A DNA stretch of 35,702 bases, taken from Chloroflexota bacterium. Lineage in GTDB: Bacteria > Chloroflexota > Dormibacteria > Dormibacterales > Dormibacteraceae. Where the stretch lies: the NCBI GenBank assembly GCA_005882135.1, contig VBDR01000058.1:1-35702 (forward strand). Direction: 5' to 3'. The notes under the pieces are model-generated. The model made no database searches. It was not told where the DNA came from and saw only the letters and a program-made list of their open reading frames with translations. This document shows positions 8,305-25,124 of this stretch, one piece after another; the first letter of the stretch is position 1, and the number at the start of each line of letters is the position of its first letter. Both the position numbers and the translations under genes were made by a program.

Positions 8305-8326
8305 GGCAGGGAGAATAGCCCCCTGA

Positions 8327-8520
8327 GATGTCACGACCCCGAAACTCCTCGCATCTTCGCGCCCTAGGCGGCCGGGCGCCTGCGGCGCTGAAGCCGGCGT
8401 CGACTCCTGCGCGCGCTCGGTCACGCATCTATGCGATGCGCTCCCTCGCGTGCTCGTCGTCTCCTTGGCTCCGGCCGCCGATGGCGCGAAATATGCTTCG
8501 GAGCTCGGAGTCGTGACATC
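8327..8520. repeat. Long palindromic element, copy A (before hom)
   Basis: A 194-bp element bounded by perfect 11-bp inverted repeats GATGTCACGAC (8327-8337) and GTCGTGACATC (8510-8520). Pairing resumes inward as TTCGCGCC/GGCGCGAA and GGCGGCCGG/CCGGCCGCC. Inside are smaller hairpins, GCGCC-TGC-GGCGC and CGCATC-TATGC-GATGCG. A 237-bp relative lies at 24887-25123. The right terminal repeat contains the hom GTG start codon. It encodes no transposase, so it is MITE-like or a structured RNA leader. Confidence 0.8.
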
Positions 8521-9811
8521 GGCACCTCGTCCCCTGAACGTCGGCCTCATCGGCCTCGGCACCGTCGGCTCGCAAGTCGCTGAGCGGATGCTGTCCTGGG
8601 GCCCGCAGCTCTCGCGGCGGGCCGGCGTCGAGCTCTGCCTGCAGAAGGTGCTGGTGCGGGACGTCGCCAAACGCCGGACGATCGAGATCTCGCCAGACCT
8701 CCTGACCGCCGACCCGTCGGAGATCCTCGAGAACCCGGCCGTCGAGGTCGTGATGGAGGTCGCCGGCGGTGACGAGCCGATGCGCTCCTACATCGAGCGC
8801 GCGATCCACGCCGGCAAGCATGTGATCACCGCCAACAAGGTCGTGATGGCAAAGCACGGCCCCGAGCTGCTGGATGCGGCCGCGGGGAAGAACGTCGACG
8901 TGTACTTCGAGGCGGCGGTCGGCGGCGGCATCCCGCTGATCAGCACCTTTCGGACCGACCTCCAGGCCAACCGCATCGAGCGCGTCTCCGCGGTCATCAA
9001 CGGCACCACCAACTACGTGCTCGGGCGCATGGCGTCCGCCGGACTGCCCATGGCGGACGCGGTGCGCGAGGCCCAGGAAGCGGGCTACGCGGAGGCCGAT
9101 CCGAGCGACGACATCGGAGGCTTTGACGCCACCTACAAGCTGGCGATCCTGGCGTCGATCGCGTATGAGATCAAAGTCCGGCCGGACGAGATCTATCGCG
9201 AGGGCATCGAAGGCATCGAACCGGTCGATTTTCGGTACGCCCGCGAGCTCGGCTATGCCATCAAGCTGATCGCTCACACCCAGCGCCATCCCGGTCGCGT
9301 CGAGGCGCGGGTCCATCCCGCGCTGGTCTCGCTCGAACATCCGCTGGCTCGCGTCGAAGGAGCCGAGAACGCGGTCTTCGTCGAGGGCGACCTCGTCGGA
9401 CAGGTGCTGCTGGTCGGGCAGGGCGCGGGCGGAAGGCCGACGGCGTCGGCCGTCGTGGGCGATCTCATCGACCTGGCACGCTCGATCCGTCGCGGCGTGC
9501 AGAGCCGCCCCTCGTTCAGCTTTGACGACCGGGTCGGCGTGATCCCGATCGGCGAGGTCAAGACGCGGGCCTATTACCGGATCCGGGTCGACGACCGCCC
9601 CGGCGTGCTGGCCGCGATCGGGCAGGTCTTCGCCGAAGAGGGGGTCAGCATCTCGAGCTTCATACAGAAGGACGCGTGGTCGCACGACATGACCGTCGAG
9701 CTCGTGGTGACCACCCATCCCTCGCTCGAGGCCAGTCTTCAGAAGGCGCGTGAGCGAATGGCGCGACTGGAGCCGGTGCACGCGGTATCCGCATTCCTAC
9801 GCGTCTTCTAG
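8513..9811 (+). CDS. hom: Homoserine dehydrogenase
   Basis: 432 residues. It reduces aspartate semialdehyde to homoserine, the branch step to threonine and methionine. NAD(P)-binding GLIGLGTVGSQV is at about residues 11-22, and catalytic-site motifs ANKVVMAKHG (near 108) and EADPSDDIGGFDATYKL (near 200) are present. A C-terminal ACT domain (YYRIRVDDRPGVLAAIGQVF, about 353-432) is where threonine feedback inhibition is normally exerted. The GTG at 8513 is the only plausible start near the fold and lies inside the right end of the palindromic element, so initiation may be affected by that structure. It opens the hom-thrC-thrB-lysC run. Confidence 0.95.
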   Translation: MTSAPRPLNVGLIGLGTVGSQVAERMLSWGPQLSRRAGVELCLQKVLVRDVAKRRTIEISPDLLTADPSEILENPAVEVVMEVAGGDEPMRSYIERAIHAGKHVITANKVVMAKHGPELLDAAAGKNVDVYFEAAVGGGIPLISTFRTDLQANRIERVSAVINGTTNYVLGRMASAGLPMADAVREAQEAGYAEADPSDDIGGFDATYKLAILASIAYEIKVRPDEIYREGIEGIEPVDFRYARELGYAIKLIAHTQRHPGRVEARVHPALVSLEHPLARVEGAENAVFVEGDLVGQVLLVGQGAGGRPTASAVVGDLIDLARSIRRGVQSRPSFSFDDRVGVIPIGEVKTRAYYRIRVDDRPGVLAAIGQVFAEEGVSISSFIQKDAWSHDMTVELVVTTHPSLEASLQKARERMARLEPVHAVSAFLRVF

Positions 9812-9821
9812 CCAGTGCCCG

Positions 9822-10892
9822 ATGGGTGTGATCGCACGCTATCGCGACCGTTTGCCCGTCGGCCCTGCCACGCCTGAGGTCGACCTCGGCGAGGGCTCGA
9901 CCCCGCTCGTGCCCAGTCACAACATCGGTCGCGCCCTGGGCCTCAAGCATCTCTATTTCAAGTACGAGGGGCTGAACCCGACCGGTTCCTTCAAGGACCG
10001 CGGCATGGTCGTCGCGGTCGCGAAGGCGCTGGAGGGTGGAAGCCGCGTCTTCATGTGCGCATCCACCGGCAACACGTCGGCGTCGATGGCCGCCTACGCG
10101 GCGCGGACAGGGGCGCGAGCGATCGTGGTCGTTCCCTCCGGGGCCGGGCCCGCGCAGGGCGCACATCCGGAGATCGCGCTCAACAAGCTATCCCAGGCGC
10201 TCATGTACGGAGCCAAGGTGGTCGCCCTCAAGGGCAACTTTGACCATGCCCTGGAGACCGTTCGCGACCTGACCAGCCGCTACCCGGTCGCGCTCATGAA
10301 CTCGGTCAACCCACACCGCATCGAAGGTCAGAAAACGGCGGCGTTCGAGATCGTCGATGCCCTTGGCGACGCGCCCGACTACCTGGTGCTGCCGGTCGGC
10401 AACGCCGGCAACATCACCGCCTACTGGAGAGGCTTTCGCGAGTACCAGGCGGCGGGTCGGGCCACGCGGCTCCCGCGGATGGTGGGCGCACAAGCGGAGG
10501 GCGCCGCGCCCATCGTCAACGGAAGTCCAGTCGCCAATCCGAGGACCGTCGCCTCGGCGATCCGGATCGGCAACCCGGCGTCGTGGGAGGGCGCGACCTC
10601 GGCGCGCGATGAATCAGGCGGCACGATCGCCGCCGTCACGGACACCGAGATCCTTTCCGCCCAGATCCGCCTGGCCAGCAGCGAGGGGTTGTTCGCCGAG
10701 CCGGCTTCGGCCGCCCCGCTGGCGCTGCTGTTCCGGCTCGTCCGCGAGGGCAAGGTCGAGAAGGACTCGACGACGGTGGTCGTTTTGACCGGGTCCGGCC
10801 TCAAAGATCCTGACGCGGCGCTGAAAAACGTAGAACCTCCGATAGAACTGGACGGAGACGCGCGCACACTCGCTAAGGTCTTGAAGCTGTGA
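9822..10892 (+). CDS. thrC: Threonine synthase
   Basis: 356 residues. A PLP enzyme that turns O-phosphohomoserine into threonine. NPTGSFKDRG holds the PLP lysine (Lys58), CASTGNTSASMAAYAAR is the phosphate-binding loop region, and LPVGNAGNITAYWRGF is the Gly/Asn-rich PLP-phosphate loop. It is the short, class-I-like form found in Gram-positive bacteria and lacks the long N-terminal extension. ATG 9822 is 10 nt after the hom stop. A GTG at 9815 is in another frame. Confidence 0.95.
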   Translation: MGVIARYRDRLPVGPATPEVDLGEGSTPLVPSHNIGRALGLKHLYFKYEGLNPTGSFKDRGMVVAVAKALEGGSRVFMCASTGNTSASMAAYAARTGARAIVVVPSGAGPAQGAHPEIALNKLSQALMYGAKVVALKGNFDHALETVRDLTSRYPVALMNSVNPHRIEGQKTAAFEIVDALGDAPDYLVLPVGNAGNITAYWRGFREYQAAGRATRLPRMVGAQAEGAAPIVNGSPVANPRTVASAIRIGNPASWEGATSARDESGGTIAAVTDTEILSAQIRLASSEGLFAEPASAAPLALLFRLVREGKVEKDSTTVVVLTGSGLKDPDAALKNVEPPIELDGDARTLAKVLKL

Positions 10893-10905
10893 CGGAGCCG
10901 CTGAG

Positions 10906-11714
10906 ATGAGAATCAAGGTTCCCGCCTCGATCGCCAACATCGGTCCGGGCTTCGACTGCATGGCGATGGCGATCGACATGTGGCTGGAGGTCGAGGCCAA
11001 CGAGTCGAACCGCCCGTCGTGGGACTACGAAGGCGAAGGCGCCGACTACCTGTACGCGCATGAGAACCCGTTCACGCGGCTCAACATGAAAGGACGCGTG
11101 CGCAGCGAGATTCCGCTCGGCGTGGGCCTCGGGAGCAGCGCTGCGGCGAGGCTCGCGGCTTCCGCGCTGAGCAGCCCGTGGGACGTGAAATCGCATGTCA
11201 TCGATGCGGGCGCCGACGAGGGGCACTACGACAACGTGGCCGCTGCGGCGGCGGGAGGGATCCGCATCGTTTCCGAAAAGGTGGACGAGAAGCTGCCCAA
11301 CCCGGGCTGGGGGCTCGCGCTCTTCATAGCCCATCAACCGCTGCCGACGGAGAAGGCGCGCACGGTCCTGCCGGATTCGGTTTCGCTGGCCGACGCCACC
11401 TTCAACGCGGCGCGAACCGCGCTGCTGGCGCGGGCGATCATCTCCAAACGCCCGGTGGTGCTGGGCGAAGCCCTGCGTGACCGCCTTCACCAGCCATACC
11501 GTCTCCACCTCTATCCATGGGTGGAGGAGGTGATCCACGTCGCGGAGGCCGCCGGTGCGCATGGCGCGGCGATCTGCGGGGCGGGGCCGAGCGTGTTTGC
11601 CTTCTGCGCGCCGTCGCAGGCGAACCGAATCGCCAAAGCGATGGAGGAAGCGCACCCGCTGCGCGGGCGCGCCCTGGTGACGAAGATCACCGACAAGGGC
11701 ATGTTCCGCACGTT

Positions 11715-11718
<4 letters not shown>
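10906..11718 (+). CDS. thrB: Homoserine kinase (GHMP family)
   Basis: 270 residues, somewhat shorter than the usual 290-310. It phosphorylates homoserine for the threonine synthase encoded just upstream. The N-terminus VPASIANIGPGFDCMAMA is typical. The ATP-binding GHMP signature is PLGVGLGSSAAAR (about residues 70-82), and the C-terminal motif AAICGAGPSVFAF is also present. It starts 13 nt after thrC. Its TGA (11716-11718) overlaps the next GTG start, so translation runs straight into aspartokinase. Confidence 0.93.
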
Positions 11719-12931
<1,213 letters not shown>

Positions 12932-12932
<1 letters not shown>

Positions 12933-12948
12933 GAGGTGCGGCACCTCC
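12932..12948 (+). promoter_or_regulatory. Hairpin that sequesters the Shine-Dalgarno of the next gene
   Basis: GGAGGTG (12932-12938) pairs perfectly with CACCTCC (12942-12948) around CGG. The 5' arm is the strong ribosome-binding site for the GTG at 12950, and its first base is the last base of the lysC TAG. A ribosome finishing lysC would melt it, so the downstream gene should depend on lysC translation. Confidence 0.65.
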
Positions 12949-12949
12949 C

Positions 12950-13963
12950 GTGCCGGTAAACGTTGCGATCGTCGGCCCGGCCGGGGCTGGCAAGACCACG
13001 CTGTTCAACGCCCTCACCTCCGGTCGCGGAGCCGACGGGGTGGGCATGGTCGACATCCCGGACGGGCGGCTCACGCGGCTGGCCGAAGCGGTCAAGCCCG
13101 CCAAGACAACTCCCGCCCAGGTTCGGGTCGAAGACTCGCCTCCCGGAAGCCGCGCCCAGCGCGTGGCCTTCGCGCGCCAGGCAGACGTACTGCTGAAGGT
13201 CGCCCGCTGCTTCGGCCCCGACCCTGATCCCGCGGCAGAGCTGGAAGAGTTCGCACTCGACCTCGTGCTGGCTGACCTGGCCTCGGTCGAAAAGCGTCTC
13301 GAGATAGTGGCCAAGGAGGCGCGCGCAGGCAAGAAGGATGCGCAGGCCGAGACCGAGGTCCTGACCGCCGCCAAGCAGCATCTCGACGCGGGCCAGCAGC
13401 TTCGCACCCTGCAGTTCGAGCCCGATCAGCGCGCGATGCTCGCGGGGATCTTCCCGGTCACCCTCAAGCCTGCCGTGTACGTCGCCAACGCGGCGGAGGA
13501 GCTGCTGCCTGGCGGGGCCGAGCCCGCGGCTAAGGTCAAAAGGCTGGCCGATGCCGAAGGCGCTCCGTCGATCACGCTCTCGGCGCGCCTCGAAGCCGAG
13601 CTGGCCGAGCTCGATCCGGCGGAGCAGGCCGAGATGCGCGCGGGCTACGGCATCGATGAGTCGGGCCTGGGCCGGATCGCGCGCGCCGTTTGGGAGACGG
13701 GCGGCCTCATCACCTACTTCACCGCCGGCGAGCCGGAGGTCAGGGCATGGCCTTGCGAGCGCGACTCCCCCGCCCCGGTGGCGGCGTCGAAGATCCACAC
13801 GGATTTCGAGAAGCACTTCATCCGGGCCGAGGTCACCTCAGTCGATGAGCTGGTCGCCGCCGGATCGATGGAGGCGCTCCGCGCCGCCGGGAAGCTCCGG
13901 GTCGAGGGTCGCGAGTACCGGGTCAAAGACGGCGACGTGATCTTCTTTCGCATCGGTCGCTGA
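12950..13963 (+). CDS. YchF-like P-loop protein with degenerate G domain (DUF933/TGS C-terminus)
   Basis: 337 residues, against about 363 for YchF. The P-loop GPAGAGKTT (about 9-17) is kept, as are RLxxLAExVKPxKTxP, the coiled middle section (ADLASVEKRLE), a YVANAAEE segment matching the unusual NxxE motif of YchF, and the full C-terminal domain (LITYFTAGEPEVRAW, KIHTDFEKHFIRAEV, KDGDVIFFR). What is missing is the switch I stretch (YchF: FPFCTIEPNTG) and the switch II stretch (DIAGLVKGASKGEGLGN), replaced by short unrelated sequence. It probably binds nucleotide but cannot switch in the usual way. A canonical YchF may exist elsewhere in the genome. Confidence 0.8.
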   Translation: MPVNVAIVGPAGAGKTTLFNALTSGRGADGVGMVDIPDGRLTRLAEAVKPAKTTPAQVRVEDSPPGSRAQRVAFARQADVLLKVARCFGPDPDPAAELEEFALDLVLADLASVEKRLEIVAKEARAGKKDAQAETEVLTAAKQHLDAGQQLRTLQFEPDQRAMLAGIFPVTLKPAVYVANAAEELLPGGAEPAAKVKRLADAEGAPSITLSARLEAELAELDPAEQAEMRAGYGIDESGLGRIARAVWETGGLITYFTAGEPEVRAWPCERDSPAPVAASKIHTDFEKHFIRAEVTSVDELVAAGSMEALRAAGKLRVEGREYRVKDGDVIFFRIGR

Positions 13964-13981
13964 GGCGTTCCGACTCCCAGG

Positions 13982-14344
13982 TCAGGAGATTCCGTAGGCC
14001 TGGCGCGTCGACCGCCGCAGCAGGATGATCAGGATCGGGATCCCAACCAGGACCACAGACCAGCCGGCCGCAACGATGACCGCGGCGATCCATCCCCAGA
14101 TTCGCAAACGCCTCAGACCGTAGTAGGCGGCGCCATGCAGGACCGCGGCCGCAAGACCGAAGAAAAAGATCATCACCGACTCGCCGGCCAGCGCCGTGTT
14201 GACGTTGCCCGTGAATCCGCCGTTGACGAGCGCCTGGGTGAGCACGTCACGCCCGGCCGGCGCCGCCAGGTACGCACCGAATCGGGTCAGCTCGACGAGC
14301 CAGAAAACCGCACCGGCGGCAAAGAGGTAGGGCAGCCACCGCAT
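13982..14344 (-). CDS. Small four-helix membrane protein, unknown function
   Basis: About 120 residues from the ATG at 14344 (MRWLPYLFAAG); an upstream in-frame GTG at 14383 would add 13 polar residues. About four hydrophobic helices are visible: LPYLFAAGAVFWLV near the N-terminus, VMIFFFGLAAAVLHG, WGWIAAVIVAAGWSVV and LVGIPILIILLRR, with a basic C-terminus (RRSTRQ). No family is recognised. It is convergent with the YchF-like gene, whose stop is 18 nt away. Confidence 0.6.
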   Translation of the reverse strand: MRWLPYLFAAGAVFWLVELTRFGAYLAAPAGRDVLTQALVNGGFTGNVNTALAGESVMIFFFGLAAAVLHGAAYYGLRRLRIWGWIAAVIVAAGWSVVLVGIPILIILLRRSTRQAYGIS

Positions 14345-14573
14345 GGGCCCGGTCTGTGCCGGCGGTCTAGATTGCAAGCTCACGCCCTATCGTCCGAAAG
14401 ATCTTGACAACAACTACATTCGGGGTTATAACTGCATCCGGGACACAACATATCGTAGCCCACGAACCAGCAGGTTGAGTCCCACGGCCCAACGACAGGC
14501 AGGCGGAACCCTTCCCGAGTCGCACCCCACGACCCAGCACCAGCTCCCCTACCCGCCTGCCTGTTCTATTCAC

Positions 14574-14716
14574 CTCCCCACCCTGTGGGGACGTCGCCCC
14601 AGCCTCCTCCCCATTTATGGGGAGGTGGCCCGAAGGGCCGGAGGGGCCAGCGGTCTCGGCCGGGTGGGGGGATTCAAATGCGATTAACCTCCCACCCTGT
14701 CGGGCGGGTGGGGCGA
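14574..14716. repeat. Intergenic hairpin repeats
   Basis: The 14345-14754 gap has no convincing gene. It holds CCCCAC-CCT-GTGGGG near 14574-14590, a two-hairpin unit at 14604-14648 (CTCCCCAT-TT-ATGGGGAG, then GGCCC-GAA-GGGCC, then GGAGGGG), and a C-rich/G-rich inverted pair around 14690-14712. The middle unit is the same type as the array at 28798-28990, with a different but still self-paired second stem. Confidence 0.65.
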
Positions 14717-14739
14717 ATCGAGCTGGCTTTCACGCCGTC

Positions 14740-14745
14740 TAGACT
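14740..14745 (+). promoter_or_regulatory. -10-like hexamer
   Basis: TAGACT ends 9 nt before the ATG at 14755. No Shine-Dalgarno is present, consistent with a leaderless transcript. Confidence 0.4.
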
Positions 14746-14754
14746 TGCAGATCT

Positions 14755-15123
14755 ATGAGTCGCAAGGGCAAGAAGCGAGCCAAAGGCAAATTCCGCCAGC
14801 CGATGCGACCTCCCGGCCCGCTCACGGGCGTGGCAACGGCGGGCGCCGGCGCCCAGACCTCGACCGTGTCGAGGAGCGTGTCCCAGGCCCGCGTCGGCGG
14901 TGACCAGGCGATGGTGCGGGCCGTCGAGATGTCGCTGGGGGGGCGCAACCAGATCATCAAAGGACGCGGCGGCAGGTTCATCGTCGAGTCCGCCGACCCG
15001 TCGATTCCGCTCGACCGCGTCCCTTACTTCACCAAGGACCTGGTGCGGCTCATGGTGGTCGGCGCGGCCATGATCGTCCTGCTCGTCGTGGGTTCGCTGG
15101 CCGTGCCCCTGGTCGTCAAGTAG
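14755..15123 (+). CDS. Basic single-span membrane protein, unknown function
   Basis: 122 residues. A strongly basic N-terminus (MSRKGKKRAKGKFRQP) precedes a soluble middle section and one C-terminal membrane helix (LMVVGAAMIVLLVVGSLAVPLVV, about 98-120), so it looks tail-anchored with the N-terminus in the cytoplasm. The next gene but one upstream of the M50 protease is a Get3/ArsA-like ATPase, the family that in eukaryotes inserts tail-anchored proteins. That pairing is suggestive only. No family is recognised. Confidence 0.55.
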   Translation: MSRKGKKRAKGKFRQPMRPPGPLTGVATAGAGAQTSTVSRSVSQARVGGDQAMVRAVEMSLGGRNQIIKGRGGRFIVESADPSIPLDRVPYFTKDLVRLMVVGAAMIVLLVVGSLAVPLVVK

Positions 15124-15212
15124 GCGTCACGATCCCTCGCTCCGTCGAGTCGCTGGTGGAGCGAACCGTCGAGGACAACCACGGCAGGCAGCAGGTGGAA
15201 ATCGACCGCACG

Positions 15213-15218
15213 TAAGAT
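15213..15218 (+). promoter_or_regulatory. -10-like hexamer before the ArsA-like gene
   Basis: TAAGAT ends 6 nt before the GTG at 15225, placing the likely transcription start on the start codon itself. It probably drives the overlapping run through selB. Confidence 0.45.
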
Positions 15219-15224
15219 TCGCCC

Positions 15225-16418
15225 GTGCGGGTAGTCCTTTTCACCGGGAAAGGTGGCGTCGGCAAGACATCGGTCGCCGCAGCCACCGCCGTGCGCTGCG
15301 CCGCCGCCGGGTATCGGACCGTGGTCATGAGCACCGACCCCGCGCACTCGCTGGGTGACTCTTTCGACCTCGAGCTCGGCAGCGACTCGGTCCAGGTCGG
15401 GGACAAACTGTGGGCGCACGAGGTTTCATCGCTCCACGAGATGCAGCGTCACTGGGCCAAGCTGCACGAGTACGCCGTCGAGGTCTTTTCCACACAGGGC
15501 CTCGACGAGGTGCTCGCCGACGAGGTCGCCAATCCTCCGGGCATGGACGAGGTCGCGTCCTTGATGTGGATCAAGCACTACACGGCGCGCGGCGAGCATG
15601 ACGTGCTGATCGTCGACTGCGCTCCGACGGGCGAAACGCTTCAGCTGCTGACATTCCCCGACGCAGCGAAGTGGTGGCTGGACAAGATCTATCCGTGGTC
15701 GCGGCGCGCGATGCGTTTGGCCCGGCCCGTGCTGCAGCCGATGATGCACATGCCCCTGCCGTCGGATGAGGTGTACGCGTCGCTGAAGGACCTGCTGGTC
15801 GACCTTGACGGCATGCGCAAGGTGCTCACGGATCCCGAGATCACGACGGTGCGCATAGTGCTCAACCTGGAGAAGATGGTCGTCAAGGAGGCCAAGCGCG
15901 CCTACACGTACCTGAGCCTTTTCGGCTACGTCACCGACGCCGTGATCGTCAATCGTCAGCTCCCGAGCGATCTCCACGACGAGCTGTTCCAGAAGTGGCA
16001 GCGCATCCATCATCGCTACCAGCTCGAGGTCGAGCAGTCATTCGCCGGGATCCCCATCTTCAACGTGCCGCTGTTCGACCGCGAGGTGGTGGGGGAGAAG
16101 ATGCTTGCGCGCATGGCGCGGGCCATCTACGGAGACGGCGACCCCTCGGCTCGCTTCGTGACCTCCAACTCGCAGCGCATCGACAAGGATGGCCAGGATT
16201 TCGTGCTGTCGCTGAAGGTGCCCTTCGTCGAGAAGTCGGCGGTGGACCTGAGCCGGCACAACGGCGAGCTCTTTGTGACGGTCGGAAATTACCGGCGCGA
16301 GATCTCGCTTCCACGCGTGCTGGCGCGGCGCGACACCGCCGGCGCCTCGATCGAGGATGGCGAGCTGCGGGTTCGGTTCGTGCGGCGGCCCGAGGCGGCG
16401 AAGGAGACCAAGAGATGA
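15225..16418 (+). CDS. ArsA/Get3-type ATPase with C-terminal Hsp20-like domain
   Basis: 397 residues. A deviant Walker A, GKGGVGKTS, at residues 8-16, then VVMSTDPAHSLGDSFD (switch I) and VLIVDCAPTGETLQLLTFP (switch II) place it in the ArsA/Get3 family of the SIMIBI class. After about residue 310 comes a beta-rich part (FVLSLKVPFVEKSAVDLSRH, then LFVTVGNYRREISLP) like the small alpha-crystallin-type domain fused to many bacterial ArsA homologues. No arsR, arsB or arsD is nearby, so arsenite export is unlikely and protein targeting is a fair alternative. It overlaps the next gene by ATGA. Confidence 0.85.
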   Translation: MRVVLFTGKGGVGKTSVAAATAVRCAAAGYRTVVMSTDPAHSLGDSFDLELGSDSVQVGDKLWAHEVSSLHEMQRHWAKLHEYAVEVFSTQGLDEVLADEVANPPGMDEVASLMWIKHYTARGEHDVLIVDCAPTGETLQLLTFPDAAKWWLDKIYPWSRRAMRLARPVLQPMMHMPLPSDEVYASLKDLLVDLDGMRKVLTDPEITTVRIVLNLEKMVVKEAKRAYTYLSLFGYVTDAVIVNRQLPSDLHDELFQKWQRIHHRYQLEVEQSFAGIPIFNVPLFDREVVGEKMLARMARAIYGDGDPSARFVTSNSQRIDKDGQDFVLSLKVPFVEKSAVDLSRHNGELFVTVGNYRREISLPRVLARRDTAGASIEDGELRVRFVRRPEAAKETKR

Positions 16419-16663
16419 GCGGCGACCGCGAGCGTGTCATCGAGCTGGTCAACGAGCTGGGCTCGCGGGTGGGGCATGCGCTCGCGGAGATGGTGCCTCC
16501 CGCGGCGCAGGTCCACCTGCTCAACGCTCAGCGCGAGCTGATCACGGCGCTGATGCTCATTTACGAAAACCGGGTCGCCCCGGCGCCGTCGGCCACACGC
16601 GCCAGGCGAGCCCGGGCCCGCCGGCGAACCAACCCGCGCGATCGCAAGATACCCATCGAGTGA
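16415..16663 (+). CDS. Small protein encoded after the ArsA-like ATPase, unknown function
   Basis: 82 residues. The ATG at 16415 overlaps the ArsA-like stop (ATGA), and the TGA overlaps the next GTG (GTGA), so it is translated as part of the chain. Residues 5-52 look like amphipathic helices (RVIELVNELGSRVGHALAEM); the C-terminus is very basic (ARRARARRRTNPRDRK). It may be a partner of the ATPase; no family is recognised. Confidence 0.65.
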   Translation: MSGDRERVIELVNELGSRVGHALAEMVPPAAQVHLLNAQRELITALMLIYENRVAPAPSATRARRARARRRTNPRDRKIPIE

Positions 16664-17370: not shown

Positions 17371-18680
17371 GGACTCTCCTCAACGAGCCGGCTTACGCCG
17401 AGCTCGTCAAGGAGTACGGACGCGAGCGGGTCGTCGAGGCGATCCGCGAACAGGTCGCATCCGAGCGCGAGGGGGCCGCCGATGCCGCCGGCAGGCACGC
17501 AGCGGTGGCCGCGAAGCTGCGGACCGTGGCCGCGCCGAGGCTGCGGCGGGTCATCAACGCCACCGGGGTCATCCTCCACACCAACCTCGGCCGCGCCCCT
17601 CTGTCCCAGGCCGCGATCGACGCCCTGGCCGTGGCCGCCGGCTACAGCAACCTGGAGCTGGACCTGGCAAGTGGCAAGCGAGGCGAGCGGGCCGCGCTCG
17701 TGGCCGGCCTCCTCACCGCTCTCTTCGGGTGCGAGGCCGCGCTGGTCGTGAACAACAACGCAGCCGCTGTGCTGCTCGCGTTGACCGCGCTCTGCAAAGG
17801 CAAAGAGGTGATCGTTTCGCGCGGCCAGCTGGTCGAGATCGGCGGCTCGTTCCGGATGCCGGACGTGATGCGGCTTTCGGGCGCGCGCATGGTCGAGGTC
17901 GGCACCACCAACCGAACCCGGCCGGCCGACTACGAAGAGGCCGTCACCCCGCGCTCGGCCGCGCTGCTGCGCGTGCACACCTCGAACTTCCGCGTCAGCG
18001 GGTTCACCGAGTCAGCCTCACTGGCGGAGCTGGCAGGCGTCGCCCGTCGCCATGGCCTGCTGCTGCTCGACGACCTGGGCAGCGGCGCGGCCGAGCCGAT
18101 CGGCGACGAGCCGACTGTCGCGGAATCGTTGAAGCACTCCGACGTGGTCACTTTCTCCGGCGACAAGCTGCTGGGCGGCCCTCAAGCCGGGATTGCGCTG
18201 GCGCGGAGCGAGCAAGGCGTCGAAGCCGTCAAGAAGATGTGGCGGCATCCGCTGGCGCGTGCCCTTCGTATCGACAAGCTCACCCTGGCCGCGCTCGAGG
18301 CGACCGTGAGGCAGCGAGTGACCGGCCACGCGGAGCAGATCCCAGTCGAGCGCATGCTGCACGCGCCGCTCGAGGATGTCCGCCGCCGCGCGGCGATGTG
18401 GTCGGTCAAACTAGCCGAGCGCGGCGTGGAAACCAGGCTGGTCGAGGGTTCTTCGGCGGTCGGTGGCGGGTCGCTGCCAGAGCACAGCGTGGCAACCACG
18501 CTGCTGGCGATCGCCGGTCCTGCCTCCCGGCTCTCGACTGCGCTCCGTCTCGGAGATCCGCCGGTCATCGCCCGCATCGACAAGGATGAATGCTGCCTCG
18601 ACCCTCGCACCATCCTGAAAGGCGAGGACGAGACTCTCATCGACGCCGTCGAGGCCGCGGCGATGACATTGCGTAGATGA
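17316..18680 (+). CDS. selA: L-seryl-tRNA(Sec) selenium transferase
   Basis: 454 residues. The PLP enzyme that converts Ser-tRNA(Sec) to Sec-tRNA(Sec) with selenophosphate. Family motifs include [21 protein letters not shown] at the N-terminus, [56 protein letters not shown] (here [11 protein letters not shown]) and the PLP lysine in [13 protein letters not shown] (Lys284). The ATG at 17316 keeps the whole N-terminal domain although it lies within the protease gene. The TGA overlaps the selB ATG. It implies selC, selD and selenoproteins elsewhere in the genome. Confidence 0.95.
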
Positions 18681-20512
18681 GCTTCGTCGTCGGCACCGCG
18701 GGCCATATCGACCACGGCAAGTCGACGCTCATCACCGCCCTGACAGGGATCGATCCCGATCGCCTGGCGGAGGAAAAAAGGCGCGGGATGACGATCGACC
18801 TCGGCTTCGCGCACATGACACTCCCGGGCGGGCGCGAGATCGGCATCGTCGACGTGCCCGGTCACGCGCGGTTCATGCGCAACATGCTGGCCGGGGCGCA
18901 TGGCCTCGACGCGGTCCTGCTTGTCGTCGCCGCCGACGAAGGCGTGATGCCCCAAACGCGCGAGCATCTCGAGATCCTCGACCTGCTCGAGGTGCGTCGC
19001 GGGCTCGTGGTGTTGACCAAGGTCGACCTCGTCGAGATCGAGTGGCTCGACCTCGTCAAGAGCGAGGTGACCGCTGCGCTGGAGGGAACTTCACTCGAGC
19101 GCGCGCCGATGATCGCGGTTTCAGCGCCCACCGGGCAGGGATTGGGCGAACTCGTCGCCGCCCTCGACGCGCTGCTCGCCGGCTCCGAATCACGCCCCGA
19201 CGCGGGCAGGCCGCGAATTCCCATCGACCGCGTTTTCACGATCAGCGGCTTCGGCACCGTGGTCACCGGCACGCTCGTCGATGGATCGATCAGCGTGGGC
19301 GAGGAGATGCAGGTCGCCCCGAGCGGCAAACCCGTGCGGATCCGCGGGCTGCAGCGTCACAACCAGAAGGTCGAGTCCGTCGGGCCGGGCAGCCGGGTGG
19401 CCGCGAACCTGGGTGGCGTGGACAAGAATGAGCTGTCGCGTGGTGACGTGCTGGCTCGGCCCGGCGCGATGGAACCTGTGCGGAGGGTTGACGCCCGGGT
19501 GCGCGTCCTCGCCTCGGCTCCGCAGCCGGTGCGTCACGGCGCCGAGGTCCTGATGCACACGGGAACGACCGAGGTGGGTTGCCGCGTGATCATGCTCGAC
19601 GGCCACCACATCGCGCCTGGAGCCGAGGGTTGGGTGCAGCTCTACCTCGATCGCCCCATCGCCGCCGCGGCCCAGGACCGATTCGTGCTGCGGGTGCCCA
19701 GCCCCGCCATCACGGTGGCCGGCGGAAGCTTCATCGACGTCGCCCCGCGCAAGCATCCGCGGCATGACTCGGCGGTGCGCGAATCGCTGGTGAGACGAGC
19801 CGCCGGCAACATTCTTGGCGAGGAGCTGCGCAAGTATCCGCGCGGCGTCACGGTCAGCGCGCTGCTCAAGGCGACGGTCGCGCCCCAGGCCGAGGTCGAG
19901 AGCCTGAGGGCACGGCGGATCGGCGAGTGGATCTTCAGCGATGAGGCGTGGCAGTCGATCGCCGCGCGGGCGGCGCATGAGCTCGATGCGTATCACCAGG
20001 CTCATCCATTCCGAAACGGGATGGCGCGCGAGGAGCTGCGGAGCCGGCTCGGCGTCCCGCCGGCGTCATTTCCGGCGGTGGTCCAGGGCCTGATCGACGA
20101 CGGCCGCATCGTCGAGCGCAACGGTTCGCTTGCCTCGCCCGACCACAGCGTTGTGCTCGAGACCCACGCCGGCCCGGCAGCGGAGCTCATGTCTTTGTTG
20201 GGACGTCAGCCGTTCGCGCCGCCCTCGCTCCCGGAGGCGATGCAGAAAACCGGGGCGAGCGATGAGCTCGTCCGTGCCCTCGTCGAACGCGGCGACGTGG
20301 TGCGCGTCGGCGATGACGTCGCCTTCACCAAAGAGGCCTACGCGTCGGCGGTGGTGATGGTCAAAGAGATCATCGCCGCCGGCGGCTCGGTCACCGTCGG
20401 CCAGCTGCGCGATCGCATGGGCGCGAGCCGGCGTCCGGTGCTGGCTCTGCTCGAGCATCTGGACTCGCAGCGCGTGACGCGCCGCGTTGGAGACGCGCGT
20501 GTCCTAAGGTAG
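18677..20512 (+). CDS. selB: Selenocysteine-specific elongation factor
   Basis: 611 residues. It delivers Sec-tRNA(Sec) to UGA codons marked by a SECIS hairpin. The EF-Tu-like G domain has [12 protein letters not shown] (6-17), the switch segment [22 protein letters not shown] (near 58) and TKVD (about 114-117). Domains II and III follow, then a C-terminal series of winged helices (from about residue 380, e.g. [15 protein letters not shown] and [25 protein letters not shown]) that bind SECIS RNA. It is coupled to selA by ATGA. The first UGA selenoprotein is not obvious in this window. Confidence 0.95.
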
Positions 20513-20520
20513 AAAAATGA

Positions 20521-20592
20521 GAGGGAACCAGTGTTCCCTCTATACGCGGCGTCGGCAAAGCCGACCCGGCCTGGCGGCCGGGCAAGCGCCGC
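20521..20592 (+). other. Structured intergenic element after selB
   Basis: Hairpin 1 is GAGGGAAC/GTTCCCTC (20521-20540, loop CAGT). It is followed by a possible three-way junction: outer stem GCGGC/GCCGC (20546-20550 with 20588-20592), arm GTCGGC-AAA-GCCGAC (20551-20565) and arm CCGGCC-TGGC-GGCCGG (20566-20581). Hairpin 1 may terminate the arsA-selB transcript, though no T run follows. The junction could be an RNA element or a dispersed repeat. Confidence 0.5.
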
Positions 20593-20637
20593 TGCTCACC
20601 CTCCTCAAGGTAAGGATTGGTAGAGTTCCCGGCACCG

Positions 20638-21510
20638 ATGAGAATCGCCGACCTGCTTGCGCGAAGCCGACCGAGCATCTCGTTCGAGTTCATGGCGCCT
20701 CGGGACGAGAGCGAGGTGGACGTCCTCGAACGCACAGTGGCGGCGCTTGCGGGCCACGCACCGGACTGGGTCTCCGTCACGTATCGCGTGCGGACAGGCG
20801 AAAAGACACTTGAGCTCGTCACTCGCATCAAGCGGCACTACCACATCGAGGCGATGGCTCACCTCACGTGCGCCAACACCGCTGACCGCACGCGCCAGAT
20901 CCTCAACTGGATGGAACGCGAAGGTGTCGCCAACGTGCTCGCGCTGCGCGGCGATCCTCCGACGACGGGCGAGCCATTCACTCCCGCCGACCCTCAGCTC
21001 ACGCACGCGAGCGACCTGATCAGGCTGGTGCGCGGCAGCGGATACCGCTTTGGCATCGGCGCGGCATGCAGCACCGAGAAGCACCCCGAGAGCCCCGACG
21101 TCGAGCATGAGTTCCAGTACCTGCAGCTGAAGGTCGAATCCGGCGCGGATTTTCTGATCACGCAGCTCTTCTTCGACAATCGGTTCTACTTCGACCTCGT
21201 CGCCCGCGCGCGGGCCGCAGGGATCAAGGTCCCGATCGTGCCCGGCCTCATGCCTGTCCCCAGTCGCCGGTCGCTCGCGTTGATGACCACGATGTCCGGC
21301 GCCTCGGTGCCGGCTGCCCTGCAGGGGGCGATCGACGAAGCGTCCGACGACGATGCGATCCGCGCGCTGGGCGTGAGGCACTGCATCGCCCAGTGCGCCG
21401 AGCTGCTCGAGGCGGGAGTCCCAGGGCTGCATTTCTATACGTTCAATCGGGCACGAGCCCCGATCGCGATCCTGGCCGCGCTCAGGGGCCAGCAGCTCAT
21501 CGCCTCCTGA
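20638..21510 (+). CDS. metF: 5,10-methylenetetrahydrofolate reductase
   Basis: 290 residues, the usual bacterial length. It is a flavin-dependent TIM barrel that makes methyl-THF for methionine synthesis. SFEFMAPRD (with the catalytic Glu near residue 18), VSVTYRV, AHLTCANTADRTRQIL, NVLALRGDPP, ADFLITQLFFDN and VPIVPGLMPV are typical. In many bacteria the first motif reads SFEFFPP. I chose the ATG at 20638 over the in-frame TTG at 20617; TAGAGT at 20621-20626 may be the -10 box. Its methionine role fits the homoserine branch upstream, but it is not in that operon. Confidence 0.93.
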   Translation: MRIADLLARSRPSISFEFMAPRDESEVDVLERTVAALAGHAPDWVSVTYRVRTGEKTLELVTRIKRHYHIEAMAHLTCANTADRTRQILNWMEREGVANVLALRGDPPTTGEPFTPADPQLTHASDLIRLVRGSGYRFGIGAACSTEKHPESPDVEHEFQYLQLKVESGADFLITQLFFDNRFYFDLVARARAAGIKVPIVPGLMPVPSRRSLALMTTMSGASVPAALQGAIDEASDDDAIRALGVRHCIAQCAELLEAGVPGLHFYTFNRARAPIAILAALRGQQLIAS

Positions 21511-21524
21511 ATCGACGGCGCGAT

Positions 21525-21530
21525 TACCCT
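21525..21530 (+). promoter_or_regulatory. -10-like hexamer before the ROK kinase
   Basis: TACCCT ends 9 nt before the ATG at 21540. The same hexamer and spacing recurs at 24874-24879 ahead of palindromic copy B. Confidence 0.35.
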
Positions 21531-21539
21531 AATCGCGCA

Positions 21540-22412
21540 ATGCTGGCCGGGATCGATCTAGGTGGGACCCAGGTGCGCGTCGCGCTGGCGCGTTCCGACG
21601 GCCGCCTGTTCGCGAGCGTCAAGACCAGGACGCCGCTGCTGGCCACGGCGCAGGCGATGGTCGAATGGGCCGCGGCCGAGATCGACAGGCACCGGGGCCG
21701 CGACAAGGTGCGCAGCATCACCATCGCGGCCCCTGGGCCGATCGACGTCAAACGCGGTGTGCTCGTCAATCCGCCCAACCTGCCCTGGCAGAACGTGCCG
21801 CTCGCAGCCATGATGGCCCGCGCCACCGGGGCCAAGGTGCAGCTGGCCAACGACGCCGACATGGCCGGGCTCGGCGAGTTCCATCACGGCGCGGGCCAAG
21901 GCACCAAAAACATGGTCTACATCACGTGGTCGACCGGCGTCGGGGGCGGCCTGATCATCGACGGCAAGCTGCATCGCGGCGCGCACGCCACGGCCGGCGA
22001 GGTGGGGCACATGATCATCGACCCCAACGGCCCCCTCGACAACTGCGGCCAGCGTGGCTGCCTGGAAGCGTTCGTCAGCGGCACCGCGCTTGCGCGCCAG
22101 ACGGGCCGTCCGGCGGCCGAGCTGTTCGCTGAGGCCGCGCGGGGCAACCGCTCCGCCCAGATGGCGGTCGAGCAAGCTGCGCGTTACATGGGCATAGCCC
22201 TGATCAGCCTCACCAACGTACTTGACCCCGAGATGTTCGTGATCGGCGGCGGCGTGTCGCGCTCATGGGGGCTGATCCAGCCGACCATGCTCGCGACGCT
22301 TCGCTCTTCGCCCTTCATCAAGCCCGCTCGCCGGCCCCGCCTGCGCCGTGCCCGCCTGGGTGATCGCGCCGGCCAGGTTGGAGCCGTGGAGTGGGCACGC
22401 ATCAACCAGTAG
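21540..22412 (+). CDS. ROK-family sugar kinase (glucokinase-like)
   Basis: 290 residues. The N-terminal ATP/phosphate loop GIDLGGTQVRVAL, catalytic-Asp segment LANDADMAGLGEFHHGAG, WSTGVGGGLIIDGKL and GEVGHM (sugar contacts) are all ROK marks. The structural zinc motif is reduced: the family's CxCGxxGCxE reads DNCGQRGCLE here, so one of three Cys ligands is gone. The C-terminus is short and Arg-rich (KPARRPRLRRARLGD). Glucose is the usual substrate of single-domain bacterial ROK kinases, but N-acetyl sugars are possible. Its end overlaps the next gene by 22 nt. Confidence 0.85.
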   Translation: MLAGIDLGGTQVRVALARSDGRLFASVKTRTPLLATAQAMVEWAAAEIDRHRGRDKVRSITIAAPGPIDVKRGVLVNPPNLPWQNVPLAAMMARATGAKVQLANDADMAGLGEFHHGAGQGTKNMVYITWSTGVGGGLIIDGKLHRGAHATAGEVGHMIIDPNGPLDNCGQRGCLEAFVSGTALARQTGRPAAELFAEAARGNRSAQMAVEQAARYMGIALISLTNVLDPEMFVIGGGVSRSWGLIQPTMLATLRSSPFIKPARRPRLRRARLGDRAGQVGAVEWARINQ

Positions 22413-23752
22413 CGGCGAAGCCGCTCGGCGACCGGGAGCTGCTTGGCCTGCTGAACCAAGCTGCCTCGAGCCTTGGCGTCAAAGCCTGGGTCGTCGGCGG
22501 CTACGTACGCGACTCGCTGCTGCACCGGTCTCATCCCAACCCCGATGTTGTGGTCGAAGAGGGCGATGCGCTCGCGCTGGCGGGGCGCTTTGCCGAGCTT
22601 GCCGGCGCCCCACCGCCGGTGACCTTCGAGCGCTATGGGACCGCGCAGGTCACGCTGCCCGGCCACCTGGTCGAGTTCGTCAACGCCCGGGCCGAGTCTT
22701 ATGCCCCCGACTCGCGCAAGCCGGACGTGCGCCCGGCGACGCTCGAGGAAGACCTCCGGCGGCGTGATTTCACGATCAACACCCTGCTGATGGACCTCAG
22801 CGGCGAGCTCCACGACCCGCTCGGAGGCGCCGCCGACCTCGAGGCGAAGACGCTGCGGACGCCGGCAGATCCGCTCCGAACTTTCGCCGACGACCCGCTC
22901 CGGATGCTGCGGGGCATCCGCTTTGCCGCCGAGCTCGGCTTTCAGCTCGCTCCCGACCTGATTCCGGCGATGCGCGCCATGAAGACAAGGCTGAGCCCGC
23001 CGGTGATCTCGGCCGAGCGGGTCGCCGACGAGCTGCGCAAGATGCTGAAGTCGCCGCGGCCGAAGCTGGCCCTGGAGCTGCTCGACGACTCCGGCCTGCT
23101 CGAGGTCATCCTGCCCGAGATCTCGGCCTGCAAGGGCGTGCTCCAGAGCGGCTATCACACCCACGACGTATTCGGCCACACGCTGCGGACGGTCGAGGCG
23201 ACGCCCCCGGATCTCCTTCTCCGCGTCGCCGCGCTGTTTCACGACGTCGGGAAACCGGCGACGGCCAAAGGCGATGGCACGTTCATCGGGCACGAGGACG
23301 TCGGGGCCCGTATCGCCCGGGCCGCGCTCGAGCGGCTGCGCTTCTCGGTGAGGGAGATCGAGGTCGTCGTCGGGCTGGTCCACCTGCACCTCCGGCCGGT
23401 GTTTTACAGGTCGGAGTGGACGGACGGCGCGGTCCGCCGCCTCGCGCGGGACGCCGGACCCCTGCTCGACCGTCTGCTCGCCCTGGCCAAAGCTGACATC
23501 GCCGCCTCCGCCTATCCCGAGCCCGAAAAGCTCGACGAGCTTCAGGCCCGCCTGGAAAAGGTCCGCTCGGAGCGCCCGTCCAGGCTCGCGCCGCTGATCA
23601 CGGGCGAGGAGATCATGGCCGTCCGGGGCATCGGCCCTGGTCCTGAGGTGGGCCGGATCAAAAAAAGGCTCGAGGAGCTGGTGATCGATGGGGAAATCGC
23701 ACCAGACCGGGCAGCAGTAATTGATTACTTGGCAACACATTCACAGCTGTAG
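22391..23752 (+). CDS. CCA-adding enzyme / poly(A) polymerase family protein with HD domain
   Basis: 453 residues from a GTG start inside the ROK gene. The nucleotidyltransferase head shows VVGGYVRDSLL, RDFTINTLLMDL, GAADLEAKTLRTP, DDPLRMLRGIRFAAELGF and ERVADELRKML, all class II CCA-enzyme motifs. The HD domain follows (HDVFGHTL, ALFHDVGKPAT). The metal-binding DxD after GGxVRD, usually DxDIVVE, reads NPDVVVE, so the first carboxylate appears to be Asn. Either metal binding is altered or another acidic residue substitutes. It would repair tRNA 3' ends; tRNA-Arg here lacks an encoded CCA and so needs such an activity. Confidence 0.88.
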   Translation: MGTHQPVAAKPLGDRELLGLLNQAASSLGVKAWVVGGYVRDSLLHRSHPNPDVVVEEGDALALAGRFAELAGAPPPVTFERYGTAQVTLPGHLVEFVNARAESYAPDSRKPDVRPATLEEDLRRRDFTINTLLMDLSGELHDPLGGAADLEAKTLRTPADPLRTFADDPLRMLRGIRFAAELGFQLAPDLIPAMRAMKTRLSPPVISAERVADELRKMLKSPRPKLALELLDDSGLLEVILPEISACKGVLQSGYHTHDVFGHTLRTVEATPPDLLLRVAALFHDVGKPATAKGDGTFIGHEDVGARIARAALERLRFSVREIEVVVGLVHLHLRPVFYRSEWTDGAVRRLARDAGPLLDRLLALAKADIAASAYPEPEKLDELQARLEKVRSERPSRLAPLITGEEIMAVRGIGPGPEVGRIKKRLEELVIDGEIAPDRAAVIDYLATHSQL

Positions 23753-23819
23753 ATCAGCCGTTATGCTCCCTTAGGAGGGGGCCGCCCAATTGGGGAGAGG
23801 CGGCCGGGGAGGTACTCGA

Positions 23820-24329
23820 ATGTCTGATACCGCCGTGGAGTCCGCTGGAGCGACCAGCACGAACGGGGGCCCAGATCCGTTGGGGCTGGACCCCAAAGCG
23901 ACCGTCATCGCCCGCGATGATTCGCTCTCAGGGAAGCTTGAGCTCAGGGGCTACGGACAGGTCCTCGGCAGCTTCAGCGGAGAGATCGAGTCTGACGGTG
24001 ACCTCTTGATCGGGCCCGAAGCCCACGTGGAGGCGGACATCCGGGGGGCGCGGATCACGGTCGCGGGTCTTGTCCGCGGCAACGTGATCGCAACCAACCG
24101 CCTCAAGATCACGAGCTCCGGGCGTCTCGAAGGCGACGCCATGGTGGGAGCCCTCATCGTGCAGGAGGGCGGCGTCCACTACGGCGTGATCCGGGTCCAC
24201 CCGGAGGGCGTGCCCGACACGCATCCAGAGCGACTCCCGCAGGTGCAGGCGCAGTCGACCGTCGTAACTTTGAGGACGGTGCCTAACCCAGTCGGGCGGG
24301 TCAGGAAGTTCTGGGGTGAGTTCTTCTAG
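23820..24329 (+). CDS. Bactofilin (polymer-forming cytoskeletal protein)
   Basis: 169 residues. A disordered Ser/Thr/Gly N-terminus (about 1-38) precedes the bactofilin beta-helix (about 39-130), seen as short Gly/Val repeats: GKLELRGYGQVLGSFSGEIES, GDLLIGPEAHVEADIRGARI, VAGLVRGNVIATNRLKI and SGRLEGDAMVGALIVQEGG. Such proteins self-assemble into filaments at the membrane and help place cell-wall or polar machinery. GGGGAGG at 23806-23812 is a good ribosome site for the ATG at 23820. It overlaps the following gene by 14 nt. Confidence 0.9.
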   Translation: MSDTAVESAGATSTNGGPDPLGLDPKATVIARDDSLSGKLELRGYGQVLGSFSGEIESDGDLLIGPEAHVEADIRGARITVAGLVRGNVIATNRLKITSSGRLEGDAMVGALIVQEGGVHYGVIRVHPEGVPDTHPERLPQVQAQSTVVTLRTVPNPVGRVRKFWGEFF

Positions 24330-24864
24330 AAGACCGTCGAAAAAGCCGTCCCGGGCGCGAGGCGAGGCGCCCCGTCCCCGGGCGGCTGAGCGGCCCGCCA
24401 GGCCAACGTCCCCGAAGGGGTCAAAGTCCGCCGCCAAACCGTCTGCTTCCGCGGCCCCTTCGCCGGTGCTCCGGAAGCCGCCTCCGCTGCCGGCGCCGAG
24501 GTCGCTGCCCAGCAGGCCCGCAATACCCCCTGCGCCGAGACCTGGGATCCGCCTGCCAGGCTCGGCCTCATCCCGGCTGACGATCAAGCCGAGCCCGTCC
24601 CAGGGACCGCGGCCGCAGCTTCAGCTGTCGACCAAGGTCCGCCCCGGCGGGTCGCGGCGGCTCAGCGAGGTCGAGCTGGACGAGGACGAGGTCCTGATCG
24701 ACGGCTTCGACGCCACCCTGGAGGGCGAGAGGGTCCGGATCACCGCGGTCCTGGAGCGGACCTGCGTATACGTCGACCGGCGTGGTGACCGCCGCCTCGC
24801 CCGCAAGGGAGACCTCTGGATAGAGGCGGACAAGCTGCCGATCCGGCGCCGCGGCATCTCATAG
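24316..24864 (+). CDS. Basic, proline-rich protein with small C-terminal domain, unknown function
   Basis: 182 residues from the GTG at 24316. Residues 1-110 are low complexity and rich in Pro, Arg, Ser and Ala, likely unstructured. A folded C-terminal part begins at about 115 (LSEVELDEDEVLIDGFDATLEGERVRITAVLERTCV in pieces). Overlap with bactofilin suggests a shared transcript and possibly a partner of the filament. No family is recognised. Confidence 0.65.
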   Translation: MSSSRRPSKKPSRARGEAPRPRAAERPARPTSPKGSKSAAKPSASAAPSPVLRKPPPLPAPRSLPSRPAIPPAPRPGIRLPGSASSRLTIKPSPSQGPRPQLQLSTKVRPGGSRRLSEVELDEDEVLIDGFDATLEGERVRITAVLERTCVYVDRRGDRRLARKGDLWIEADKLPIRRRGIS

Positions 24865-24873
24865 TTCTTCCGC

Positions 24874-24879
24874 TACCCT
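24874..24879 (+). promoter_or_regulatory. -10-like hexamer upstream of palindromic copy B
   Basis: TACCCT ends 7 nt before the element. If used, transcription would begin at the left end of the element and the whole palindrome would be the 5' leader of glpX. Confidence 0.3.
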
Positions 24880-24886
24880 GAGCCTG

Positions 24887-25123
24887 GAGTGTCGCGCCCC
24901 CGAATTTCCTCGCAGCTTCGCCCGCTAGGCGGCCGGGCGCCGAACCACCCCACGAAATCTGTCGATTTCGCGGGGACCCCGGTGTGGGCGCTGAAGCCTG
25001 CGTCGACTCCTGGGCGCGCTCGGTTACGCATCCGCGGGATGCGCTCCCTCGCGTGCTCGTCGTCTCCTTGGCTCCGGCCGCCGATCGGGCGAATCTGTGT
25101 CGGAATCCGAGGTCGCGACACTC
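24887..25123. repeat. Long palindromic element, copy B (before glpX)
   Basis: A 237-bp relative of the element at 8327-8520, bounded by GAGTGTCGCG (24887-24896) and CGCGACACTC (25114-25123). Inner pairing is TTCGCCCG/CGGGCGAA and GGCGGCCGG/CCGGCCGCC. The conserved core from about GCGCTGAAG to CCGGCCGCC is nearly identical to copy A. It has an extra 42-bp segment that itself forms a hairpin (CGAAAT/ATTTCG flanked by CCCC/GGGG). The right end stops 1 nt before the glpX ATG. Confidence 0.8.
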
Positions 25124-25124
25124 G

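What the first reader, a model, noticed from the sequence alone, without database searches (positions are those of the whole stretch)
8327..25123. Palindromic element at two start codons, with compensatory base changes
Copies at 8327-8520 (hom) and 24887-25123 (glpX) share ends, core and fold. Seen directly: at the ends, TGTCACG pairs with CGTGACA in copy A and TGTCGCG with CGCGACA in copy B, an A-T to G-C switch on both arms. Further in, TTCGCGCC/GGCGCGAA in A becomes TTCGCCCG/CGGGCGAA in B, two pairs that each change on both sides. The hairpin CGCATC-N5-GATGCG is kept with a different loop. Pairing, not sequence, is conserved, and both copies end within or 1 nt before a start codon. It may be a transcribed structured leader or a MITE-like element with a preference for gene starts.
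Basis: seen in the sequence. Interest (0 to 1): 0.78.

Follow-up and report, generated by a model that had tools for sequence, protein, structure and literature searches.

The report
Mobile hairpin that keeps operons translated
A roughly 190-base hairpin repeat dispersed in a group of uncultured soil bacteria sits at gene starts, and where it lies inside an operon it usually carries an open reading frame that begins beside the upstream stop codon and ends on the next gene's start codon, so that ribosomes can probably pass through it.

Summary
Copies A and B belong to a dispersed ~190-nt palindromic family; all 80 rows listed (of 81 hits) in GTDB contigs carry Candidatus Dormibacterota or 'Chloroflexi bacterium' MAG titles. 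No Rfam family reaches its cut-off. On 54 copies, 27 of 44 pairs change on both sides (0 of 500 shuffles reach this). Filled and empty sites exist in relatives.

Two results change the reading.

The opposite strand folds better in 90 of 94 copies. So the folded single strand is antisense to hom and glpX.

It stops on the next start codon (GTGA at hom, ATGA at glpX). Its frame is kept where genes on both sides read that way (33 of 41 sites), not elsewhere (5 of 28; Fisher 3e-7).

Best explanation: a mobile palindrome tolerated in operons because translation passes through it. Mycobacterial MIRUs are described as working this way; this is a different, covarying, fully palindromic family. What moves it is unknown.

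The parts
8327..8520 (+). Inner-arm subtype I.
8328..8516 (+). Open reading frame through copy A, 62 codons, ATG start, stop TGA (8514-8516) overlapping the hom start codon GTG (8513-8515)
8513..9811 (+). hom, homoserine dehydrogenase
   Evidence: Pfam PF00742, PF03447, ACT
7354..8304 (-). Divergent neighbour, ornithine cyclodeaminase/mu-crystallin family
   Evidence: gene limits from the home-made caller
8312..8317 (-). TATTCT, -10-like hexamer before the divergent gene, also present in most empty hom sites (promoter role inferred)
24887..25123 (+). Copy B of the element, S strand, with nested hairpin
24889..25128 (+). Open reading frame through copy B, 79 codons, GTG start, stop TGA (25126-25128) overlapping the glpX start codon ATG (25125-25127)
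24942..24986 (+). Nested small hairpin repeat inside copy B; also found alone elsewhere in the genome
   Evidence: limits by eye
24874..24879 (+). TACCCT, -10-like hexamer ending 7 nt before copy B (promoter role inferred)
25125..26129 (+). glpX, class II fructose-1,6-bisphosphatase
   Evidence: Pfam PF03320

Best explanation
A dispersed, once or still mobile palindromic element of Ca. Dormibacterota. Shown: many copies; filled and empty orthologous sites; one long hairpin whose stems covary, also between copies that share a site. Shown statistically: in operons the other strand (S) is usually kept as an open reading frame. It starts on or beside the upstream stop codon (ATGA, TAGTG, TAAGTG) and stops on or beside the start codon of the next gene (NTGA, TAATG, TGATG, TAGTG). 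Inferred: ribosomes translate through the insert by termination-reinitiation, so it does not cut an operon. That filter would explain its place at gene starts, its orientation in operons and its near absence from convergent spacers. Inferred: the folded R strand (RNA or single-stranded DNA) is the form that is copied or recognised when the element moves. The enzyme is unknown.
For: Family and host: 36 of 61 genomes incl. own match; 81 stretches in GTDB contigs, the 80 listed all titled Ca. Dormibacterota or 'Chloroflexi bacterium' MAG; 8 of 201 phylum genomes incl. own; 4 copies below E 1e-5 in the own genome, of 7 rows. Filled sites: hom 3 of 24 loci and glpX 4 of 23, a ccmF-like junction 4 of 21 and a hydrolase gene 4 of 19. 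Covariation; same-site copies show double changes at 5 of 63, 4 of 66, 4 of 83 and 0 of 71 pairs. Strand: A.C 83 against G.T 15 in the terminal stem of 94 copies; stems P1+P2+P3 125 against 34; opposite strand more stable in 90 of 94; in two other genera A.C 16 against G.T 6, 16 of 17 copies. Context: 48 (+,+), 25 (-,+), 15 (-,-), 1 (+,-), 5 one-sided of 94, against 305 tandem, 47 divergent, 59 convergent pairs; convergent p 7e-4 by site. Frame: length in frame 38 of 48 (+,+) copies, 8 of 25 (-,+), 1 of 15 (-,-); by site 33 of 41 against 5 of 28, Fisher 3e-7. Coupling: 38 of 48 (+,+) copies have the element-frame stop at the 3' end with a start of the next gene within -10 to +12 nt, 24 overlapping or adjacent. 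A third own-genome copy runs from ATGA to GTGA before a DAHP synthase gene.
Against: No expression data; genes were called with a home-made caller on MAG contigs. Of 48 (+,+) copies 4 stop early, 3 run on and 3 fit no class. Openness alone is not specific: S is open through in 9 of 15 (-,-) copies too, and another frame of S is open in 68 of 94 against 78 for this one. In G025 only 3 of 7 tandem copies are open to the end, in G046 0 of 4 copies, 2 of those 4 in convergent spacers, so coupling is not a property of the whole family. Common descent of lengths could inflate the frame result, though several lengths (152, 191, 194, 218, 236, 260) are in frame. Wobble: in (-,-) copies the terminal stem gives only 5 against 2; P8 gives 9 against 7; and in the poorly paired linker between P1 and P2 all three registers tried have more G.T than A.C (77/45, 217/156, 173/13). 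No transposase: 0 of 37 genomes have Y1_Tnp; 8 of 37 have RVT_1, not tracking copy number. No general target-site duplication. The wobble bias could in principle be mutational.
Confidence: 0.7

Rival explanations
1. A cis-acting structured RNA leader: the mRNA of hom, glpX and other genes folds into the hairpin to regulate translation or transcription.
Against: In the stems, wobble tolerance and stability favour the strand antisense to the gene in most tandem copies. The neighbouring genes seen are unrelated. Tandem copies sit at stop/start junctions, mostly without a -10-like hexamer (2 of 48).
Confidence: 0.11
2. An ordinary MITE whose arms are kept complementary by DNA-level template switching (quasi-palindrome correction), with no selection on a fold.
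For: Dispersal with empty sites; no known RNA family; footprint-like short palindromes at glpX in G006, G011 and G013.
Against: A correction process acting on both DNA strands should leave A.C and G.T mismatches equally often; 83 against 15 is seen, with the same lean in two other genera. It does not explain frame keeping by context.
Confidence: 0.14
3. A mobile small gene whose peptide is functional.
For: Open frame of typically 64 codons with a start codon at the 5' end.
Against: Codon positions vary alike in (+,+) copies (0.199, 0.278, 0.209) and others (0.226, 0.208, 0.226) in the 5' arm. The two inner-arm subtypes encode different peptides. No Pfam match to the peptides of A and B. Frame not kept outside tandem context.
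Confidence: 0.05

Closest known systems
MIRU, mycobacterial interspersed repetitive units
   Same: Described as apparently mobile repeats that insert at start codons so that an ORF inside the repeat is translationally coupled (-4 nt spacing) to the gene, with minimal effect on its expression (passages of PMC12548453). G046 also has tandem arrays of a related unit, period 128-130, as MIRU loci do (recalled).
   Different: Another phylum; ~190 nt; one covarying hairpin with a strand preference. MIRU sequence and structure were not compared here; a palindromic MIRU architecture is not recalled.
Rickettsia palindromic elements (RPE)
   Same: ~150-bp palindromic repeats with an ORF, often compatible with translation of the host gene (passage of PMC10969869).
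   Different: Many RPEs fuse in frame inside genes; here the element stands between genes and ends on the next start codon. The RPE peptide is described as conserved; here no sign of peptide selection.
ERIC, RUP, Correia/NEMIS and other bacterial MITEs
   Same: Dispersed palindromic or inverted-repeat elements without their own transposase (recalled; ERIC, BOX and RUP are named in passages of PMC10969869; Correia is recalled).
   Different: Variable but covarying ends instead of fixed terminal repeats; no general target duplication; frame kept by context.

Membership tests
MIRU-like coupled repeats | Insertion at or near start codons | tested here: met
   91 of 94 copies have a neighbour reading away from the element on one side: 76 on the right and 15 more, (-,-), on the left. 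Of 76 right-hand genes 54 had a start called outside the element, 38 of these within 10 nt; in 22 the caller ran into the element. G046: 2 of 4 convergent.
MIRU-like coupled repeats | ORF within the repeat coupled to the downstream gene | tested here: met
   By sequence: 38 of 48 (+,+) and 14 of 25 (-,+) copies; 24 and 10 overlapping or adjacent. Coupling itself not assayed; 3 of 7 tandem copies in G025 and 0 of 4 copies in G046.
MIRU-like coupled repeats | Sequence homology with mycobacterial MIRUs | not tested
   No MIRU sequence was fetched or aligned.
RPE | Located inside genes as an in-frame insertion | tested here: not met
   Copies lie between called genes; a few read on, e.g. L027.
MITE | Conserved terminal inverted repeats | tested here: inconclusive
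   Consensus AGTGTC/GACACT, but ends vary with compensation.
MITE | Target-site duplication | tested here: not met
   Four arm-versus-flank tests, mean best matches 6.46, 6.63, 6.31, 6.61 against shuffled 6.33, 6.46, 6.34, 6.40, at most 1.8 sd; TA on both sides in 13 of 94.
REP/RAYT system | Y1 transposase of the IS200/IS605 type in the genome | tested here: not met
   0 of 37 genomes at E 1e-6; 5 of 14 control genomes ring.
Known Rfam RNA | Match above gathering score | tested here: not met
   Only a tRNA in the whole window; below-cut-off matches only for copy A (best E 0.52) and for two distant loci (best E 0.022).

The most novel reading that the evidence does not exclude
A mobile element class with two codes on its two strands: one strand is selected as a folded single strand (RNA or ssDNA intermediate) that an unknown enzyme moves, while the complementary strand is selected, in operons only, as a translatable bridge carrying ribosomes from one gene to the next.
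Probability: 0.3. Interest if true: 0.85.

Novelty: new variant of a known kind. Interest (0 to 1): 0.62.

Why it matters
It gives a natural experiment on translational coupling: the same insert keeps its reading frame mainly where ribosomes must pass through it. It extends the MIRU idea to an uncultured phylum and to a palindromic architecture, and the one-sided wobble test suggests which strand of a DNA palindrome is used as a folded single strand, a test that can be applied to other bacterial repeats. It also points to an unidentified mobilising enzyme.

Tried and rejected
Target-site duplication or homology of the 5' arm with the downstream gene start: not general, though a few copies (L143, L132, L019, L062) look suggestive. 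TA or CTAG as a general target: TA on both sides in 13 of 94. Autonomous versions with an internal gene: eight one-sided BLAST hits were followed up (the list was cut), and all eight proved to be elements with variant tips, not split ones. RAYT and reverse transcriptase as movers (G004, G009 and G013, rich in copies, have no RVT_1, and G019, with no copy, has one). First overall mismatch count over 60-nt arms (A·C 172, G·T 145) mixed loops with stems and misled me towards a strand-symmetric mechanism; the per-stem counts replaced it. Selection on the peptide. 'All copies start at a transcription start': -10-like hexamer at the expected distance in 7 of 15 (-,-), 4 of 25 (-,+) and 2 of 48 (+,+) copies. 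The 94 full copies are those left from 120 unique profile hits in the loci then held; they come from strong matches to copy A and from an exact 22-base core pattern, so they lean towards close relatives. In the by-site count one (-,-) copy of L116 was merged into a (+,+) cluster. One search folded copies with rarely occupied columns removed (86 of 94 favour R, 7 the other way); one search repeated it on unaltered copies (90 and 4).
Full report
What was checked. Copies A (8327-8520) and B (24887-25123) are as described. Each folds as one long hairpin with z near -7.5. The flanking genes are hom and glpX, and the divergent neighbour of hom is an ornithine cyclodeaminase-family gene. No Rfam family reaches its cut-off.

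The family. Copy A finds relatives in 36 of 61 genomes including its own. An exact 22-base core pattern hits 81 stretches of the GTDB contigs; the 80 rows listed are all titled Ca. Dormibacterota or 'Chloroflexi bacterium' MAG. A 20-base pattern hits 0 viral contigs. A covariance model of the core finds 4 copies below E 1e-5 in the own genome (of 7 rows at E up to 1) and matches in 8 of 201 genomes of the phylum, own included. In another family of the class (G046) a related inner arm sits in a palindrome with different ends and also in tandem arrays of period 128 and 130.

Mobility. Of 24 hom loci 3 hold the element (G000, G009, G013); a fourth copy at hom, from G026, is; 7 of 7 hom loci of that set re-read on the right strand are empty. 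Of 23 glpX loci 4 hold it (G000, G002, G007, G009), in G007 at a different spot. A ccmF-like gene (PF01578) holds it at the junction in 4 of 21 loci (G003, G006, G011, G013), with one more element farther upstream in G005. An alpha/beta-hydrolase gene holds it in 4 of 19 (G004, G005, G011, G016), with one weak partial match in G017. Some glpX regions without the element (G006, G011, G013) hold a short palindrome resembling the two arms alone. No general target duplication was found.

Structure. On 54 copies of 94, one per site where sites were recognised and without nested inserts (lengths 189-196), 27 of 44 pairs change on both sides; score 0.251 against 0.092 for shuffles, 0 of 500 as high; slid structures score 0.041-0.074. 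Copies sharing a site also show double changes: 5 of 63 pairs at hom, 4 of 66 and 4 of 83 at two other sites, and 0 of 71 between two near-identical glpX copies. At hom the subtypes differ, so some copies there may be separate insertions or conversions.

Which strand folds. If the mRNA strand were selected to fold, G·U pairs should outnumber A·C mismatches on it. By context the terminal stem gives 32 and 4 in (+,+), 19 and 5 in (-,+), only 5 and 2 in (-,-). The opposite strand is more stable in 90 of 94 unaltered copies, by 9-11 kcal/mol on average in the three larger contexts. In two other genera the count is 16 against 6, and 16 of 17 copies. A first count over longer arms showed no bias (172 and 145); it mixed loops with stems. 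So the folded strand is most likely R, antisense to hom and glpX. Whether it is RNA or single-stranded DNA is not shown.

Place in the genome. Of 94 full copies, gene pairs read along S are (+,+) 48, (-,+) 25, (-,-) 15, (+,-) 1, one side unknown 5. The background in the same loci is 305 tandem, 47 divergent, 59 convergent. Counted by site, convergent spacers are avoided (p 7e-4) and S orientation prevails in tandem pairs (41 against 12, p 8e-5). A -10-like TANNNT lies 9-16 nt before the border in 7 of 15 (-,-), 4 of 25 (-,+) and 2 of 48 (+,+) copies.

The reading frame. Copy A reads ATG...TGA for 62 codons, the stop overlapping the GTG of hom. Copy B reads GTG...TGA for 79 codons, the stop overlapping the ATG of glpX. 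A third own-genome copy starts inside the upstream stop (ATGA) and ends on the GTG of a DAHP synthase gene (PF00793) after 57 codons. Over all copies, the length from the element's start codon to its last base is a multiple of three in 38 of 48 (+,+), 8 of 25 (-,+) and 1 of 15 (-,-) copies. By site it is 33 of 41 (+,+) against 5 of 28 of the other two classes, Fisher 3e-7. In 38 of 48 (+,+) copies the stop lies at the 3' end with a start of the next gene within -10 to +12 nt (most often -1, 13 copies, and +2, 11 copies); 3 run on, 4 stop early, 3 fit neither. In (-,+) it is 14 of 25, 5 stopping early. Upstream, the element's start lies -1, +2 or +3 from the upstream stop in 24 of 48. Openness by itself is weaker evidence: shuffled elements are open in 35% of cases, this frame of S in 78 of 94, another frame of S in 68 of 94, and S is open through in 9 of 15 (-,-) copies. 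The peptide shows no sign of selection and no Pfam match.

Interpretation. The simplest account is a mobile palindrome that survives inside operons when ribosomes can pass through it. R-oriented reading is rarely open (R 'through' 3 of 48 in (+,+), 7 of 25 in (-,+), 4 of 15 in (-,-)), which would keep R-oriented insertions mostly to promoter-proximal positions. Limits: no expression data, a home-made gene caller, fragmentary MAG contigs, and lineages in which coupling is weak or absent (G025 3 of 7 tandem copies, G046 0 of 4 copies).

Compared with the literature. A 2025 review describes MIRUs as apparently mobile repeats that insert at start codons so that their ORF couples with -4 nt spacing (passages of PMC12548453). 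A MITE review describes RPEs as ~150-bp repeats with ORFs, many fused in frame with host genes (passages of PMC10969869). So the principle is known; the family, its covarying fold, the strand preference and the context-dependent frame were not found described in the searches made (of which only listings were seen beyond the two papers named).

Noticed in passing
window 24946-24975; L337, L338 (G000:C16): A separate ~30-nt hairpin repeat (CACCCCACGAAATC...GATTTCGCGGGG), nested in copy B and found alone at two places on contig C16 (3 exact matches in the own genome), in what looks by eye like a ribosomal-protein region (not searched). A variant lies at L006.
   Followed up: partly
L238 437-1057, L239 1998-2491 (G046): Tandem arrays of a related unit, period 128 (4.9 copies) and 130 (3.8 copies), reminiscent of MIRU-VNTR loci.
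   Followed up: no
glpX upstream in L205 (G006), L201 (G013), L203 (G011): Short palindromes at G007's insertion point that look like the element's two arms without its interior: excision footprint or pre-existing target.
   Followed up: no
window 32540-35185: DnaB helicase with an intein carrying a LAGLIDADG domain.
   Followed up: no
L061 (G005:C366) and the ccmF-like site of G003, G006, G011, G013: Elements with the same unusual end (AGGATCACG) at two neighbouring gene starts that share GTGATCCT; may reflect a local hop guided by end homology.
   Followed up: no
copies in alignment A2: Two inner-arm subtypes occur on the same outer stem and even at the same site (hom: G000 and G009 subtype I, G013 subtype II), suggesting conversion or replacement of the tip.
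   Followed up: partly
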